Shown in pieces: positions 15,036 through 20,821 of a stretch of DNA of 20,821 nt (position 1 is its first letter; every line of letters begins with the position of its first letter). The DNA is from a virus. The DNA is taken from positions 1 to 20,821 of the IMG/VR virus record IMGVR_UViG_3300013010_000099; one strand, given 5' to 3'. The notes under the pieces are model-generated. The model made no database searches. It was not told where the DNA came from and saw only the letters and a program-made list of their open reading frames with translations. Made by a program: the position numbers and the translations under genes.

Positions 15036-15287
15036 TTACTCTTTGCTTGACTTTTTTTCAAGCGTTGCGTTATCCACGGCAATTTTGAGGTGCTGTCTTA
15101 CTAGCTCAACCCCTTTTAACCGTGCATAGATGGCCTCTCTGCCAGCTATATCGTTTGGTGCCGTGGTCTTAAATTCGCCCCACGACACCTGATCTATTTC
15201 ATCCAAGAAAAGGGTCAGGTCGGTATCTTCCAATAGCCGCCTTGCTGATTGTCCTTCTTGGAGAATTTGTGGCTTTGTCTTAATCAT
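15036..15287 (-). CDS. Small unknown protein between portal and scaffold
   Basis: An 83-aa soluble, mostly helical protein with no recognised domain. Visible segments are ILQEGQSARRLLEDTDLTLFLDEI (8-31) with alternating hydrophobic and charged residues, and a second helix GREAIYARLKGVELVRQHLKIA (49-70). The ATG overlaps the portal stop by eight bases, so translation is coupled, and the scaffold follows after 15 bases. Proteins of this size and place recur in related podoviruses; an assembly role is likely but the function is not known. Confidence 0.68.
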   Translation of the reverse strand: MIKTKPQILQEGQSARRLLEDTDLTLFLDEIDQVSWGEFKTTAPNDIAGREAIYARLKGVELVRQHLKIAVDNATLEKKSSKE

Positions 15288-17436
15288 TAGTTACCTGTTT
15301 GATTACGTCAGCTTGAGCCTTCATAACTTCACGGTTGATTGCCATGTCGCTTTTCAGTTTCTCAACGTCCATGCGGTTGCCGTATTTGGCTTTCATTTCT
15401 TCAGCCGCAATCAGAATGTCAGCTTCCAGCTTGTCGCGCTTGAAATCATCCTCAAGCATCATTTTCTGGCGCTCAAGTTCAAGCTCGGCAGTTTTCTTTT
15501 GGATGTCGGCTTGGATTTGCTGGATCTGCACTTGGATGAACATTTCATTCACATCAGGCTTTTGCTCTTGCTGTGATGGTTGGAAGTCGGCTGGATCAGA
15601 CCAGAACCGCGAGCTATCTTTAAAGCCTGCAAGCTCGGTGATTTCCTTGAGCGTGTTAGATAGCTTGGTCATGTCTGTGAGTGGGTTCTGTGCGCCCATC
15701 TCGGTCATAGCCTGACGTTGCTGTTGTGCAATTGATGTGAGAACAGCCATGCGCTCGTTAGTGGTGCCGCGACCAAGGGCTACATTTACTACACAGTCCA
15801 TCCCAGCGTCCCATACGGAAGGGTCGATTTGCACAAATTCATTCCGAAGGCGGATCATGCGCGGTTGATCTTGGTGCATAACCACGTTTTTAAGAATAAG
15901 CTTGTAAAGCTGTTTCATGCCTGTTTCCGCAAACACACGGGCAATCATTTCGATATGCTCTTGAGATGCGCTTACAACCGCGTTTACGGCTGTTGCAGTG
16001 CTGTTCTGTAGTGCGCCAGCATCAAGCCCTGCAGAGGCGCGTGAAATGCCTGTGCGAGCCTCTTTGACCGCATCCATGTATTCCAGCACTGGGAAGGCTG
16101 CCTGACCAACAAATGGCATCGACAACGGCTGCACGGCACCCGCAGATTTCTGGCGAATAATTGCGCCAACCTCTGTATTCATAACGTCCTCGATTGATGC
16201 CTGTCCCTCAACCACCGTCATGCGTGGATGGATCGACATAGCCAAGCTGTCGAGCGTGTTGCGCATAATGACAGACTTGATGCGCTGAATATCAGACACC
16301 ACATCGGCAATGCTCATACCGAAGAAATCGTGTGGTTCTGGATCTGGGCAAAACGCCGCAAAAGGGATTGCATCTACAGGCTCGTTTGAAAGCACCTTCT
16401 TACCGTTGCCTGCGACACACACCTTGCGAAGCTCGGCAATACCATCGCCATTAAAATCGACCTTGATGTATGTTTCGATATACATAACTTTACGCATAGC
16501 TTCATCGCTACGAGCGTTTGTCATCGTGGTTAGCGCTGGGTTGCGTGTGTAGCGCTCCACATTGGTGTCAAGCTCATCAGTGTCGGATGCTAGATCCTCG
16601 ACCTCATCTTCATCGTATCCCATAGACACAAGCTCAGAGACCGTCACAGCGCGGCGATGCGCTACAAACTCTGCCTCCTCTAAACTGGTCGCTCTACGGT
16701 CGATTAGGAACTCCTCTGGTGGAATAGCTGCAATTTTTACGCGGCCATTCGAGCGTTCATGTGTCAATCTAACATCGTGGACAAGCGGGGCAGGCATAAC
16801 TGCGCCCGTCATTGGGTCAACCATATCCTCGCCATAAGGCTCTGAAGATACGATCTCTACGTCAACCTCTGGATCTGCCATAAGCGCTGAGAGAGCGTTA
16901 TCGTCCAAGCCTGTCATGTCGTAGGTCTTGATCTCTTTGTTCTCATCGAACCAGACTTTGATAATCCCCATCTTGCGGATCAGCGCGTCTTTGAATGCAG
17001 AGTGCAAAGCTAGAAAGCCACGGTTGTCGCGGTTCATAATGAAATTGGCATAGTCGGTAGCTTGATCCGCAGCGTCAACATCTTCCGCAGATTGCGGCAT
17101 GAACTCCACGGTTCGCTCTGATCCCGTAAAGATCCGCATTAAGCTCGGCAGGATTGCCTGCACAGTATCGCGCACATCCATCGAAACAACTTGGCTGCGT
17201 CCATCCTCCTCATCACCGAATGGATCACCGCGATAATACTCTGTCGCCTTGGCACGAACAGGCGAGACAGTGTTGTCGATGAAATCAACAGAGTCATCAA
17301 TCTCCTTGGCAACAATGCTTTGAAGCTCGGTTTCATCCATCTGATCATCATCTATTTCTTCGTCCATCTCATCGTAAATGAGATCATCGGTAACTTCGGT
17401 CAAGTTCTCAACCAAATCATTGATTTCTTTTTTCAT
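15280..17436 (-). CDS. P22-type portal protein
   Basis: At 718 aa it matches the length of the P22 portal (725 aa), the dodecameric ring at the packaging vertex through which DNA enters and leaves. Family-like features are YYRGDPFGDEEDGRSQVVSM (67-86), VQAILPSLMRIFTGSERTVEF (92-112), a wing and stem region with FNGDGIAELRKV, and GISRASAGLDAGALQNSTATA. Residues about 620-718 form a long charged helix rich in Gln/Lys/Glu, resembling the C-terminal barrel helices of P22-like portals. The N-terminal 35 residues are unusually acidic. It overlaps the upstream ADP-ribosyltransferase-like gene by ATGA and the downstream small gene by eight bases. The family call is secure. Confidence 0.92.
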   Translation of the reverse strand: MKKEINDLVENLTEVTDDLIYDEMDEEIDDDQMDETELQSIVAKEIDDSVDFIDNTVSPVRAKATEYYRGDPFGDEEDGRSQVVSMDVRDTVQAILPSLMRIFTGSERTVEFMPQSAEDVDAADQATDYANFIMNRDNRGFLALHSAFKDALIRKMGIIKVWFDENKEIKTYDMTGLDDNALSALMADPEVDVEIVSSEPYGEDMVDPMTGAVMPAPLVHDVRLTHERSNGRVKIAAIPPEEFLIDRRATSLEEAEFVAHRRAVTVSELVSMGYDEDEVEDLASDTDELDTNVERYTRNPALTTMTNARSDEAMRKVMYIETYIKVDFNGDGIAELRKVCVAGNGKKVLSNEPVDAIPFAAFCPDPEPHDFFGMSIADVVSDIQRIKSVIMRNTLDSLAMSIHPRMTVVEGQASIEDVMNTEVGAIIRQKSAGAVQPLSMPFVGQAAFPVLEYMDAVKEARTGISRASAGLDAGALQNSTATAVNAVVSASQEHIEMIARVFAETGMKQLYKLILKNVVMHQDQPRMIRLRNEFVQIDPSVWDAGMDCVVNVALGRGTTNERMAVLTSIAQQQRQAMTEMGAQNPLTDMTKLSNTLKEITELAGFKDSSRFWSDPADFQPSQQEQKPDVNEMFIQVQIQQIQADIQKKTAELELERQKMMLEDDFKRDKLEADILIAAEEMKAKYGNRMDVEKLKSDMAINREVMKAQADVIKQVTND

Positions 17437-19247
17437 AGTAAGCCCCTGTTGGTTGATTTTGGTAGCAAGCTCTGCGAATTGTTTTGCTTGAATGCATCTG
17501 AAATGTCTGCCTCAGATACGCCATAAAAAGATGCCGCACCAGCGATGCCGTATTTCTTAACTATGCTTAACAGCCTATCATCAAACACAACATAATTTCG
17601 AGTTCCTATTTGATTAAGGTCAGTTTCAAAACCTTTGTCTTGATATTCTTTAACAATGCGATCAGCCTCGGAACGTGATCTTGCTTTGATTGGTTCGGTT
17701 GGATAATCCTGACCTTTTATTTTTAGTTTTATTTCCCAACCCATGCCGCGAGATCCAGCATCAAGATACTTTGATCCAGATATGCCTTTTTCAAGTAAAG
17801 ACTTGGAAATATTTTCTGGTGGCACATTTCCAAGAAAATCTGTCATTCTCCCACCTTTGGCAACTTCCATTCCAAAGCTATCTAAAGGTGGTGCGCCCTT
17901 TGGTATTGGCAAAGGTATTTCATTGTATTCTGAAATTTCATCTTTAAGAGCTTTTTCTAAATTTTCATCGTTAATCTTTTGAACTCTTTTAACTTCAGCT
18001 TTTGCCTCTGGTGTCCAACCAAGTGCGCTTTGCACCTTTTGGGTTTGCTCTTTGATAGGCAAATCTAAATTTAAAAATGTTTCTGGATCTGCATTAATTC
18101 TTGTTTGATATAAAGCACCTTCACGATTGAATTTAGGTTTAATGCTTTTATTGAACCAGTCCATTGTAGGGGCATCATATGCTCCACTTGCTGCCCTTTG
18201 CTCAATTACAAGCAAATCACCCTCTTTCATAATATCTTCAAGCATAGCTAACTTGTTGTATTCTTTTTGAGCAACTGCAGCAGGCATTCGATCTGCGCCC
18301 ATAGAGATCTCTGAATAAAGATCCTCAATTGGCTTATTGCCAACTTTTATATCAATTGATTTTAACCTAGCGGTCAAACCATCACGATAAGTTCTAGCAA
18401 TATCTGGAGTTTCAGTAGTGTATCCACCCCATCCATATGCTTGTGCGCCCTCACCGCTGCCCATTTTGTTAAAATCAAACATCCCAAGTGGATTTTCATC
18501 AATAATTTGGTAGCGATCAGGGTTTTTTGATAGGATGCCAGCCGCGACTGGATCACCTGACTCTTGAACGTAGGTTTTCCCAGTTTCCTTATCTAATATT
18601 CTAATACCTGATGGAAACTTATGCGGTGTTCCATGCCAAACTTCAAATCCAACAGGCTCTGGGATTACTTCTTTTGGATCATAACCAAAGCGCTGAATAT
18701 TTGCCTCACGGCGCATTTGATCGGCTTTAGATAAAGCTGGAATTGGCGATACCTGACCGACAACATCAGCGCCAGCCGCCCGTGCGCTCTGTGGGCTATT
18801 CCATCCTGTCAGGAAGTCCATGTCGCCAGATCCGATAGCCCGTGCAGTGCCGACCATATCAGTTGCTGCGAAGTCTCCAGCCTTCTTGGCGTTCTTGCTT
18901 ACCCGTGCTGCTACATCCGTTAGAAGATCGGCACCGACCTTGCTTGCGGCAGGAGCGCCCAATAGGCCAAGCCCAGCGCCTGCAGTTTCCGACAACATAT
19001 TGCTTGTGGATATTAAGCGCTCCATCGGTGTCTTGTTGGCAGCAAAAATGTCTTGAGATTGTGTGCCTGCGCGGTCAAGGCCAGAGATAGGGTTGCTATC
19101 AGCGAGCAATCCAAGCGCCTGCGGCAAAGAGTTGCCAGCGCCCATATAGTAGCTCAATGCTTTGTTGATTGGTGTATCAACATTTTGGTTCAGCCACTGA
19201 CGGCGCTTTTGCCCAGCGTCTGGCGTAAATATATCCCAAATGCCCAT
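17433..19247 (-). CDS. ADP-ribosyltransferase-like (polyvalent-type) protein between terminase and portal
   Basis: Residues about 200-570 of this 604-aa protein resemble the ART-PolyVal domain, an ADP-ribosyltransferase-like module of phage polyvalent proteins. Landmarks are VWHGTPHKF (203-211), with H205 matching the His of the PARP/diphtheria H-Y-E triad; KMGSGEGAQAYGWGGYTTE (261-279), with Y276 as the likely triad Tyr; FLNLDLPIKEQ (391-401); and KGISGSKYLDAGSRG (487-501) followed by NYVVFDDRL (551-559). The residue before this last strand, where PARPs have Glu, is an Asn (N551). Two extra segments, about 212-257 and 505-547, split the usual motifs. Residues 1-120 are helical with a hydrophobic Gly/Ala patch (89-101). 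The gene overlaps the portal by ATGA. Packing in the head and injection, as for T4 Alt, is inferred. Confidence 0.78.
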   Translation of the reverse strand: MGIWDIFTPDAGQKRRQWLNQNVDTPINKALSYYMGAGNSLPQALGLLADSNPISGLDRAGTQSQDIFAANKTPMERLISTSNMLSETAGAGLGLLGAPAASKVGADLLTDVAARVSKNAKKAGDFAATDMVGTARAIGSGDMDFLTGWNSPQSARAAGADVVGQVSPIPALSKADQMRREANIQRFGYDPKEVIPEPVGFEVWHGTPHKFPSGIRILDKETGKTYVQESGDPVAAGILSKNPDRYQIIDENPLGMFDFNKMGSGEGAQAYGWGGYTTETPDIARTYRDGLTARLKSIDIKVGNKPIEDLYSEISMGADRMPAAVAQKEYNKLAMLEDIMKEGDLLVIEQRAASGAYDAPTMDWFNKSIKPKFNREGALYQTRINADPETFLNLDLPIKEQTQKVQSALGWTPEAKAEVKRVQKINDENLEKALKDEISEYNEIPLPIPKGAPPLDSFGMEVAKGGRMTDFLGNVPPENISKSLLEKGISGSKYLDAGSRGMGWEIKLKIKGQDYPTEPIKARSRSEADRIVKEYQDKGFETDLNQIGTRNYVVFDDRLLSIVKKYGIAGAASFYGVSEADISDAFKQNNSQSLLPKSTNRGLL

Positions 19248-19263
19248 GTGAGATTATTCCCTA

Positions 19264-20106
19264 TTATTGAAAAGCTGGGCTTCTACGGTAATTTTCATAC
19301 ATATACCGCAAACCTTCTGGGGTCATGTTATCAACATTAATAGCGCCATTTTGGTTGCGCAGCCAGCTTGAATACATTTGATCACTCATACCGCTGGGAG
19401 GCATTCCATTTGATGCATTCGGCATTACTTTAGATCCCAAAGCGCCCATAGGCCCATTAGTGTTGCTGTATGGCGTTCCCGCTGGTTGAGTTGTGGCTTG
19501 CATAACATTCCAGTTGCTTGGATCGTAACCTACTCCAACACCACTCATGCCAATTGATGAAAGTGGAGCATTCATTGCTGGATTGCGAGCAAGGCCGTAA
19601 AAGTCTTGTGGGCTTGCTTGCATACTGGATTGCTGACCAACGCTTGCTGGAACAGCACCCAATCCCGCTGGTCGAGCTTGTGGGCGCATAGATGCATTAG
19701 GCGCAAGCTTGCTCTGAAGGCCAAGCGTTTGTAGCAAGCCACCATTTGAACGGATCTGATTACCCAGCGCAGGGCGAAGCGCACCCATTGCAGCACCACC
19801 AATGCCGCCAGTAAAAGCTCCAAGCAAACCACCTATAGCTGGGTTTGCCATCATGCCGCGAAATCCTGTTAGTGTCTCGCCGCGACCATCTTGTGTCTGA
19901 CGGGTAAAACCAGACGGCGCTACATTTGGATCACGATCTTTACCGCCAGCCGCTTTGTAATCAGCGTTTGACATTGTTGAGAAAGAAGCACCAGAACCAC
20001 CACGGCCACCACCATCAAACATATCTCTAAGCGCGGAAACCTTTTTGCCAGACTTTGAGTCTTTATAACCCCAGCTTTTCTTTTCTTTCTTTTCTTTCTC
20101 AGCCAT
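19264..20106 (-). CDS. Glycine/methionine-rich unknown protein after the terminase
   Basis: No family is recognised. The 280-aa product begins with a strongly basic head (MAEKEKKEKKSWGYKDSK), then a Gly-rich linker (31-39). A stretch at 88-115 (NPAIGGLLGAFTGGIGGAAM and on) has glycine-zipper spacing and could insert into a membrane. The remainder is rich in Pro, Gln, Met and Asn with low complexity, ending in a small helix EGLRYMYENYRR (264-275). It has a strong GAGAAGGA ribosome binding site and lies between the terminase and the ADP-ribosyltransferase-like gene. The glycine-zipper segment and low-complexity body are compatible with an internal head or ejection protein, but this is inference. 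Confidence 0.65.
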   Translation of the reverse strand: MAEKEKKEKKSWGYKDSKSGKKVSALRDMFDGGGRGGSGASFSTMSNADYKAAGGKDRDPNVAPSGFTRQTQDGRGETLTGFRGMMANPAIGGLLGAFTGGIGGAAMGALRPALGNQIRSNGGLLQTLGLQSKLAPNASMRPQARPAGLGAVPASVGQQSSMQASPQDFYGLARNPAMNAPLSSIGMSGVGVGYDPSNWNVMQATTQPAGTPYSNTNGPMGALGSKVMPNASNGMPPSGMSDQMYSSWLRNQNGAINVDNMTPEGLRYMYENYRRSPAFQ

Positions 20107-20173: not shown

Positions 20174-20821
20174 CTAGACGATGCCGCCAATGTTTCGGCG
20201 CAGCGGCTTATCCCAGATTGCCTGCGCCTTATATCCAATGGCAAGGTATCGCATTGCATCAGCGCCGTGCGAAGTCCAATCGTGTAATGGTCGCATTCTC
20301 CAAGTCTTGCCCTTCTCATCCCAGTCCCTGCGATACTGTCTCAGGCACTCAATGCCGCGACCACAATGCTCCTCATCAAACCACGCCGTGCGGAGCATCA
20401 TGCGGGTTGCTTGGATGCCGTCATCCAGCGATAGGCTGGGCGCAATCTCGATATTGGTAAGGCCAAGCGTATTGAGCGTTTCGACCCGTGTCTTGCCTGT
20501 GCCAAGCTCCCTGACCCGTGCATCGTGCGGCAGTATGTGTTGGTCGTAAACGTAGCCCTTGTCGTTAATCACCTTCACATAGTGATCAAGGCCAACGCCT
20601 GATGCTTCATAAAAGTCGATGATCCGCATTTCCTGACCAACGCGCTGGGCAAACCAAATAGCCGTGCTGTCAGACATTCCCAGATCCCACGCCGTCACAA
20701 CGGCCACAGATGGCTCATACGGCACCACACTAACGCGCTTGGCCTCAGTAGCTAATTGCATCTCTGTGCCGTAGTAAGCGCCTTGAATGGCCGCCTCAAA
20801 GCTGCACTCAAACTCCTGCAA
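20174..20821 (-). CDS. Terminase large subunit, C-terminal nuclease part (partial)
   Basis: The frame is open at the window edge, so this is only the 3' part of the gene, about 216 codons; the ATPase half lies outside. The visible part is the RNase H-like nuclease domain that cuts the concatemer during headful or unit-length packaging. Metal-binding acids are likely D46 in VVTAWDLGMSDSTAIW, D100 in ILPHDARVREL and D188 in HDWTSHGADAMRYLA (numbered from the window edge). The CLRQYRRDWDEK stretch (159-170) is also typical of podovirus and siphovirus large terminases. The next gene follows after a 67-base gap, the largest real gap in the window. The end of the reading frame is a normal stop at 20174. 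Confidence 0.9.
   Translation of the reverse strand: MQEFECSFEAAIQGAYYGTEMQLATEAKRVSVVPYEPSVAVVTAWDLGMSDSTAIWFAQRVGQEMRIIDFYEASGVGLDHYVKVINDKGYVYDQHILPHDARVRELGTGKTRVETLNTLGLTNIEIAPSLSLDDGIQATRMMLRTAWFDEEHCGRGIECLRQYRRDWDEKGKTWRMRPLHDWTSHGADAMRYLAIGYKAQAIWDKPLRRNIGGIV

What the first reader, a model, noticed from the sequence alone, without database searches (positions are those of the whole stretch)
17433..19247. ADP-ribosyltransferase-like protein encoded between terminase and portal
The motifs VWHGTPHKF, GSGEGAQAYGWGGYTTE and NYVVFDDRL follow the layout of ADP-ribosyltransferases of the phage polyvalent type, with H205 and Y276 as the first two residues of an H-Y-E-like triad. The gene is coupled to the portal gene in the head operon. 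It may therefore be made late and packaged for injection, like T4 Alt, so that the phage could modify host targets at once on entry. The motifs are seen; packaging and injection are inferred.
Basis: partly seen in the sequence, partly recalled or inferred. Interest (0 to 1): 0.75.

Follow-up and report, generated by a model that had tools for sequence, protein, structure and literature searches.

The report
Swappable effector gene beside phage portal
This phage carries, next to the gene for its DNA portal, a protein with a predicted ADP-ribosyltransferase domain, and relatives carry quite different domains on the same kind of N-terminal piece in the same place, which suggests an exchangeable cargo that the virus may deliver into its host.

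Summary
In detail: window 17433-19247 (-) encodes 604 residues with the three motifs; the gene overlaps the portal start (ATGA). A confident AlphaFold2 model of residues 196-604 matches an ART-like domain in a solved podovirus pre-ejectosome protein (Z 10.1) and PARPs (Z 6-7), so the ART reading holds. H205 and Y276 are nearly invariant in relatives. The third active-site position is probably N551, not E or D; the published description says H-Y-D, and one sequence test favours D557. ARTs near terminase/portal are already predicted in print to be packaged (PMC5512222, PMC9503650). The unexpected part is the slot. In many phages with related portals the gene here keeps an N-terminal leader but has another C-terminal half: ART or one of at least five other types; some have no gene here. 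In sister contigs the leader is 74-97% and the portal side 84-96% identical in DNA, with no match between. Three leader families each carry three or more effector types; no leader has a Pfam or PHROG match above chance level. This resembles MuF polymorphic toxins, without MuF or an immunity gene. Module exchange is shown; packaging, injection and catalysis are inferred.

The parts
17433..19247 (-). cargo gene: N-terminal leader plus C-terminal ART domain, 604 aa
18663..19247 (-). leader, residues 1-195 (family 1; in relatives the exchange boundary lies roughly at residues 125-165); no Pfam or PHROG match above chance level
   Evidence: HMM of 11 other family-1 leaders finds it at E 4.2e-12; alignment A9
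17523..18662 (-). ART domain, residues 196-575
   Evidence: AlphaFold2 mean pLDDT 87.5 for residues 196-604; fold match
18615..18641 (-). motif I, strand 1, VWHGTPHKF with H205
18411..18461 (-). motif II, GSGEGAQAYGWGGYTTE with Y276 in strand 2
17577..17600 (-). motif III, strand 5 and turn, residues 550-557 RNYVVFDD; N551 invariant in the viral relatives, D556 and D557 variable
18480..18614 (-). insertion of 45 residues between motifs I and II; insertions of like place are seen in L002/L012, L015, L020, L028 and L247
17601..17741 (-). insertion of about 47 residues (beta-beta-alpha-beta) between strands 4 and 5, alignable in 7 other relatives
17433..17455 (-). last codons NRGLL and stop, overlapping the portal start (ATGA); DNA homology to sister contig L182 resumes here
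15280..17436 (-). portal gene, downstream partner
   Evidence: SU10_portal E 3e-213, phrog_1216
19264..20106 (-). 280-aa gene between terminase and cargo gene, unknown
   Evidence: no Pfam or PHROG match at E<=1; kept in L183 and L184, which lack the cargo gene
20174..20821 (-). terminase large subunit, cut by the window end
   Evidence: phrog_2472 (unnamed) E 6e-49, phrog_2 terminase large subunit E 2e-8

Best explanation
The gene is one allele of an exchangeable head-operon cargo gene of phages with SU10-type portal and capsid genes. It has an N-terminal leader (about residues 1-165) and a C-terminal effector that is replaced by recombination. In this phage the effector is an ART-fold domain of the polyvalent-protein type. 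Probably translated together with the portal (ATGA overlap), it is made with the head proteins, probably taken into the virion through the leader, and delivered with the DNA, where it binds NAD+ through H205 and Y276 and transfers ADP-ribose to a host target (or removes an NAD-linked defence). Shown here: the predicted fold, residue conservation, head-operon position, and leader/effector exchange among relatives. Inferred: packaging, injection, NAD chemistry, target. The likely Asn at the catalytic-Glu position makes poly-ADP-ribosylation unlikely and fits mono-transfer or a non-standard reaction.
For: ART fold: the ten best entries by Z are 9k3a_B (podovirus pre-ejectosome, Z 10.1, rmsd 4.5, 151 aligned, chain 1418-1605) and nine PARP1/2 entries (Z 6.0-6.9); next unrelated row Z 5.5. 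Family: 44 of 49 alignment members match PF18760 at E<=0.1; 16 viral models at Foldseek E<=1e-3, three named ART-PolyVal-like. Residues: H205 in 82 of 84, Y276 in 84 of 84, N551 in 84 of 84 viral or phage relatives. Purifying selection on the ART in four pairs of one clade, dN/dS 0.13-0.16. Slot: of 80 portal relatives, 67 show an upstream gene and 14 of these have the ART. Exchange: L207(ART)/L235, L247(ART)/L260, L247/L254, L223(ART)/L226, L204/L221 match in leader and portal side but not in the effector; leader families (single linkage) carry 5, 3 and 3 effector types. Leader HMMs hit only slot genes among the ORFs of those contigs plus window and phiGT1 (784 targets, E<=0.01). Retrieval by leader alone gives E0 32, E1 18, E2 6, cut 3 of 59, and ART 5, E2 5, E3 4, E0 1, other 2 of 17.
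Against: No proteomic proof of packaging for any leader protein was seen; phiGT1 virion mass-spectrometry data exist (PMC10386132, Table S3) but could not be read. In phiM5 the gene at this place (a different, 173-aa 'putative peptidase') carries no 'detected in phage particle proteome' note, while portal, scaffold and capsid do. Not every portal relative has a leader gene here: L197, L213, L188, L256 and like loci have other small genes. The window ART gives no PF18760 match. The third active-site residue is not acidic by structural register, L012/L013 have Q instead of H205 and L330-L332 look degenerate, so activity may be lost in part of the family. Foldseek itself found no PDB match at E<=1e-3; PARP Z values under 8 are not decisive alone. 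Leader model confidence is low (block pLDDT 27-66 up to residue 170). Many contigs are near-duplicates, and the ART relatives were chosen for their ART, so counts are not independent.
Confidence: 0.6

Rival explanations
1. A late cytoplasmic ART, not packaged: made beside the portal because of operon position, it modifies host or phage proteins late in infection, or protects terminase and portal from a defence that targets them.
For: Only gene position and the leader pattern speak for packaging; PMC9503650 itself offers protection of the packaging apparatus as an alternative (passage). The leaders have no known structural domain.
Against: A cytoplasmic enzyme does not need a leader conserved across unrelated effectors; the best solved match lies in a pre-ejectosome protein.
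Confidence: 0.2
2. A structural or ejection-channel component in which the ART fold is a scaffold without catalysis (a pseudo-enzyme).
For: The ART-like domain of A-4L ORF27 sits in a pre-ejectosome; the strand-5 position is N (or C) instead of E in nearly all relatives aligned.
Against: The gene is absent in L183 and L184 and replaced in other relatives, so it is not needed for the particle; H and Y stay conserved.
Confidence: 0.12
3. A polymorphic toxin used against rival phages or non-immune bacteria, in the manner proposed for MuF toxins.
For: Leader plus variable C-terminus in the packaging module, as in MuF toxins (PMC5576092, abstract and passages).
Against: No MuF domain and no small immunity ORF: the portal start overlaps the stop.
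Confidence: 0.08

Closest known systems
ART domains of phage polyvalent proteins (Pfam PF18760 ART-PolyVal; Iyer et al. 2017, PMC5512222, passages)
   Same: Motifs I and II, ART fold, encoded among virion genes; 44 of 49 members of the domain alignment match the Pfam model at E<=0.1
   Different: Single-effector gene of 604 aa; two insertions; no match of the window protein itself to the Pfam model; strand-5 residue probably N551 where the paper states D
Phage ARTs beside terminase/portal (PMC9503650, passages)
   Same: The paper predicts that such ARTs are packaged and delivered; position agrees
   Different: The passages seen do not describe exchange of effectors on a leader
MuF polymorphic toxins (Jamet et al. 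2017, PMC5576092, abstract and passages)
   Same: N-terminal domain constant, C-terminal domain variable, packaging module; ARTs among the C-termini
   Different: No MuF domain, upstream rather than downstream of the portal, no immunity ORF
Anabaena phage A-4L ORF27 (PDB 9k3a chain B, pre-ejectosome)
   Same: Best structural match, residues 1418-1605; podovirus
   Different: 1717-aa protein annotated 'tail protein'; aligned part 12% identical; its strand-5 region reads TTLVINPD by my placing
Sulfitobacter phage phiGT1 gp5 (QLB38217.1)
   Same: Leader (sub-family 0b, E 5.7e-21) plus ART (28% identity over 56% of the window protein) in the head module
   Different: Second gene after the portal, before the scaffold
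T4 Alt
   Same: Proposed role: virion-delivered ART
   Different: R-S-E triad, different ART clade (PMC5512222, passage)

Membership tests
ART-PolyVal / polyvalent-protein ART | ART fold, six core strands | tested here: met
   predicted model only
ART-PolyVal / polyvalent-protein ART | score over the PF18760 cut-off | tested here: not met
   no match for the window protein at E<=1 or E<=10; relatives phiGT1 30.0 and L017 30.9 bits against cut-off 31.2
ART-PolyVal / polyvalent-protein ART | H in strand 1 and Y in strand 2 | tested here: met
   H205, Y276
ART-PolyVal / polyvalent-protein ART | D in strand 5 (PMC5512222) | tested here: inconclusive
   D556 and D557 follow strand 5 but are not invariant; structural register puts N551 at the catalytic position, the best sequence-only register prefers D557
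ART-PolyVal / polyvalent-protein ART | encoded among virion genes | tested here: met
MuF polymorphic toxins | N-terminal MuF domain | tested here: not met
   no MuF model (PF04233, PF06152) among Pfam matches of the window protein at E<=1 or of ten slot proteins at E<=0.1
MuF polymorphic toxins | gene immediately downstream of portal | tested here: not met
   immediately upstream
MuF polymorphic toxins | constant N-terminus, variable C-terminus across relatives | tested here: met
MuF polymorphic toxins | small downstream immunity ORF | tested here: not met
   stop overlaps portal start
T4 Alt-like ARTs | R-S-E triad | tested here: not met
   H205, Y276, N551
virion-delivered effectors | protein present in the particle and injected | not testable with these tools
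   needs proteomics; Table S3 of PMC10386132 not readable here

The most novel reading that the evidence does not exclude
A polymorphic, virion-delivered effector system of podoviruses that does not use MuF: unnamed leader families at the terminase-portal slot direct interchangeable effectors (an ART of H-Y-N type, ART-like E3, GNAT-like, DUF7178-like E2, and unknown E0, E1, E5) into the particle and the host, possibly with a C-terminal GLL tag.
Probability: 0.55. Interest if true: 0.8.

Novelty: new variant of a known kind. Interest (0 to 1): 0.62.

Why it matters
If the leader is a packaging or ejection signal, it gives a sequence handle for finding phage-injected effectors of unknown function: what follows a leader at this slot is a candidate host-takeover or counter-defence protein. 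It also turns 'is this ART injected?' into a direct test, since leader and effector can be tested apart. An invariant Asn at the strand-5 position would mean that a common phage ART family works without the acidic residue that the literature assigns to it.

Tried and rejected
Direct profile searches (Pfam, PHROGs, NCBIfam, PDB sequences) found only chance-level matches for the window protein (best Pfam DUF6489 E 0.1, best PHROG E 0.21), so the assignment rests on relatives and fold. The A4 profile against PDB sequences gave only chance hits. Foldseek against the PDB gave no match at E<=1e-3 for either model. hhalign of A4 with seven bacterial PARPs aligned motifs I and II only; an ungapped register test of the strand 5-6 segment scored D557 with the PARP Glu highest (-1.7) and N551 second (-7.0), which speaks against my N551 reading. 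I still prefer N551 because the structural alignments end in one register for PARP1 and for PARP2 (residue numbers recalled), because D557 is not conserved, and because within one Tunturi_5 protein three like segments read TNYAVFSS, QEVIAFES and HNYVVFDD. No PARP was found in 35 genomes that hold ART relatives; the PARPs came from 8 of 301 other genomes.

The C-terminal GLL tag (25 of 117 cargo or ART ORFs against 22 of 834 others) was first suspected to be only a ribosome-binding site of the portal gene; its codons vary, so it is kept as a note, but the contigs are related and the count is not a test. The insertion at 503-549 resembles T7 Gp2 (Z 4.2 and 4.1) and AcrIF9 (Z 3.8 and 3.6) by fold, as it does several unrelated small folds; no sequence match, so no function is claimed. 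A first pass over the portal slot mis-indexed overlapping genes and was replaced. A first leader/effector split mixed ART starts into leaders; replaced, where effector family 0 was split because L023 carries both an ART and an E0-like part. L182 was used for its effector only, its leader being cut by the contig end. The window leader (residues 1-199) found nothing in the phage records better than E 2. The phrase search returned jumbo-phage, type VI and Rhs papers (listing only); nothing on this leader was seen, which is no proof of absence.
Full report
What is there. The ORF at 17433-19247 (-) is real, 604 aa, with all three motifs at the stated residues. It lies in a head operon: terminase fragment, a 280-aa gene, this gene, portal (SU10_portal), an 83-aa gene, scaffold, major capsid protein (SU10_MCP). 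Its stop overlaps the portal start as ATGA. The record is a virus record of 20821 bases, the window itself.

ART domain. No library model matches the window protein above chance level. Relatives do: tblastn links it to phiGT1 gp5 (E 2e-17), and a profile search of viral contigs confirmed 542 of the 600 pattern matches it looked at, the best 80 kept. Of the 49 members of the domain alignment (48 relatives and the window), 44 match PF18760 at E<=0.1, best 2e-12; the window is not among them. AlphaFold2 gives mostly high confidence from about residue 200 to 560 (full length; residues 196-604, mean pLDDT 87.5), with six core strands; H205 lies in the first, Y276 in the second and N551 in the fifth. 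VIA-align ranks 9k3a_B first (Z 10.1, rmsd 4.5, 151 aligned), then nine PARP1/PARP2 entries (Z 6.0-6.9), then unrelated rows from Z 5.5; with the full-length model 9k3a_B has Z 10.5 and nine PARP or tankyrase entries follow (Z 5.6-7.7). Foldseek alone gives no PDB match at E<=1e-3 but 16 viral models at that level, best 5e-17, three of them named ART-PolyVal-like.

The solved match. 9k3a chain B is ORF27 of Anabaena phage A-4L (identical over residues 1401-1717; annotated 'tail protein'); the entry's title is 'Cyanophage A4 pre-ejectosome'. The aligned part, 1418-1605, contains LYHGT and GSGTYFS. The structure paper is not held; only its title was seen, in the reference list of PMC12810830. 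So an ART-like domain is present in a pre-ejectosome protein of a podovirus, though not in this protein.

Active site. In 84 viral or phage relatives H205 is H in 82 (Q in two), Y276 is Y in 84, N551 is N in 84; D556 is D in 67 of 83, and D557 is D or E in 67 of 83. The strand-5 motif was one of two search patterns; among the 53 of 84 proteins whose motif does not fit that pattern, a pattern scan finds the N in 52 and the profile alignment also in the last, L022, while the following residues change to P, A, G, H and others. In 80 genome relatives, found with motif-II patterns only, N551 is N in 66, C in 8, G in 1, with 5 gaps; H205 is H in 75, T in 4, 1 gap. The ends of the structural alignments place PARP1 E988 and PARP2 E545 (numbers recalled) on N551 if no gap lies near the end. 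Against this, the best ungapped sequence register pairs D557 with the PARP Glu. PMC5512222 (passages) states H, Y and an aspartate in strand 5. I hold H-Y-N at about 0.7.

Slot analysis. With the window portal as query, 352 relatives were found and the best 80 kept (portal 61-100% identical). A portal ORF was found in 77, and an upstream same-strand gene of 100 aa or more in 67; 14 of the 67 carry the ART. L183 and L184 (portal 74%) have terminase, the 280-aa gene and portal with nothing between. Cultured HTVC106P and Venkman have terminase directly beside portal. Other loci carry different proteins here, some with a leader and some (L197, L213, L188, L256 groups) without. L182, 94% identical to the window DNA over 6.65 kb, has another effector, and identity begins in the last codons of the gene.

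Exchange of modules. Leaders and effectors of 105 proteins (slot proteins of 300 aa or more, ART relatives of up to 750 aa, phiGT1) were clustered apart by single linkage. The ART relatives were chosen for their ART, so ART counts are raised by design. Leader family 0 carries E0 (13), E1 (6), ART (5), E2 (3), E3 (2); family 1, the window's, ART (8), E1 (2), E2 (2); family 2 ART (6), E1 (1), E5 (1). Most of the other leaders are single or in small families with ART only. L202 and L221 leaders are identical over 126 aa with unrelated effectors. At DNA level, leader side and portal side: L207(ART)/L235 84% and 84%; L247(ART)/L260 81% and 87%; L247/L254 80% and 86%; L223(ART)/L226 74% and 95%; L204/L221 97% and 93%; L206/L221 93% and 96%; no blastn match (E<=1e-8) in the effector part. 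An HMM of 11 family-1 leaders without the window finds the window gene at E 4.2e-12; four leader HMMs hit no non-slot ORF among 784 targets at E<=0.01, though many slot targets were in the training sets. Many contigs are near-duplicates, so counts are not independent.

Retrieval by leader alone, overlapping with the portal set, gave 59 family-0 loci (E0 32, E1 18, E2 6, cut 3; a window-type portal within 2.6 kb downstream in 55, contig end in 4) and 17 family-1 loci (ART 5, E2 5, E3 4, E0 1, other 2; window-type portal in 4). For five of the 13 without that portal, flanking genes were scanned, and each has a large terminase gene adjacent or two genes away. The two 'other' look like GNAT and ParB-like domains by eye. 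The five ART loci are few: L321 and L322 are the contigs of L210 and L211, and L330-L332 score alike and look degenerate. E2 weakly matches DUF7178 (E 1.7e-5, below cut-off), and L254 of E3 weakly PF18760 (E 0.014).

Leaders elsewhere. Among Pfam and PHROG matches of the slot proteins scanned, none in a leader is better than chance (DUF5849 in L246 E 0.07, DUF6489 in the window E 0.1). In 50,697 phage records the L247 leader finds only phiGT1 gp5 (43.5%, E 2e-9), the L195 leader nothing at E<=0.01, and the window leader nothing better than E 2.

Function and selection. In four pairs of family-2 genes the ART part has dN/dS 0.13-0.16 and the leader 0.15-0.30. ART relatives elsewhere also sit by head genes: of the 75 loci left after dropping near-duplicates, 60 had a close upstream neighbour, of which at least 10 match a portal model and at least 8 a large terminase model; 54 had a close downstream neighbour, at least 7 and at least 4.

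What is known. PMC5512222 and PMC9503650 (passages) already predict that phage ARTs near portal or terminase are packaged; PMC5576092 (abstract and passages) describes MuF toxins with constant N- and variable C-termini. The ART is therefore of a known kind; the leaders and the exchange at this slot were not seen in the listings and passages. Verdict: new variant of a known kind, packaging untested.

Noticed in passing
window 17595-17597 (N551) and relatives: Strand-5 residue is Asn in all 84 viral or phage relatives aligned and Asn or Cys in 74 of 75 genome relatives with a residue there, against the published H-Y-D description of this family.
   Followed up: yes
window 17601-17741: A beta-beta-alpha-beta insertion between strands 4 and 5, alignable in 7 other relatives, resembles T7 Gp2 and AcrIF9 in fold at low Z; it sits next to the active-site strand and might take part in target recognition.
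   Followed up: partly
L012, L013: Close relatives with the same two insertions have Q in place of H205, so part of this subfamily may be inactive.
   Followed up: no
window 17433-17455; L182, L207, L210, L247, L197, L034 and others: Cargo proteins with unrelated effectors, and neighbouring small proteins ending in RP.GLL, often end in GLL within the last nine residues, with varied codons.
   Followed up: partly
PHROG 873: Named endolysin, yet it matches 44 of 49 ART-domain sequences; the name probably comes from another part of the 1277-position profile and may mislabel phage ARTs.
   Followed up: no
L023: One protein carries an ART and a stretch similar to effector E0 (34.6% over 156 aa to L194), a step towards a polyvalent protein.
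   Followed up: no
L246, L254: Effector E3 looks like a second ART-like type with HG[ST] and TEQVTFDP or REQTIYNP, that is with Glu at the strand-5 position (by eye).
   Followed up: partly
L189, L191, L193, L195, L202 and others: A 170-190-aa gene ending in RP..RP.GLL lies just before the cargo gene in several relatives; where a like gene is itself the slot gene (L197, L188) it looks like a lytic transglycosylase or lysozyme (by eye).
   Followed up: no
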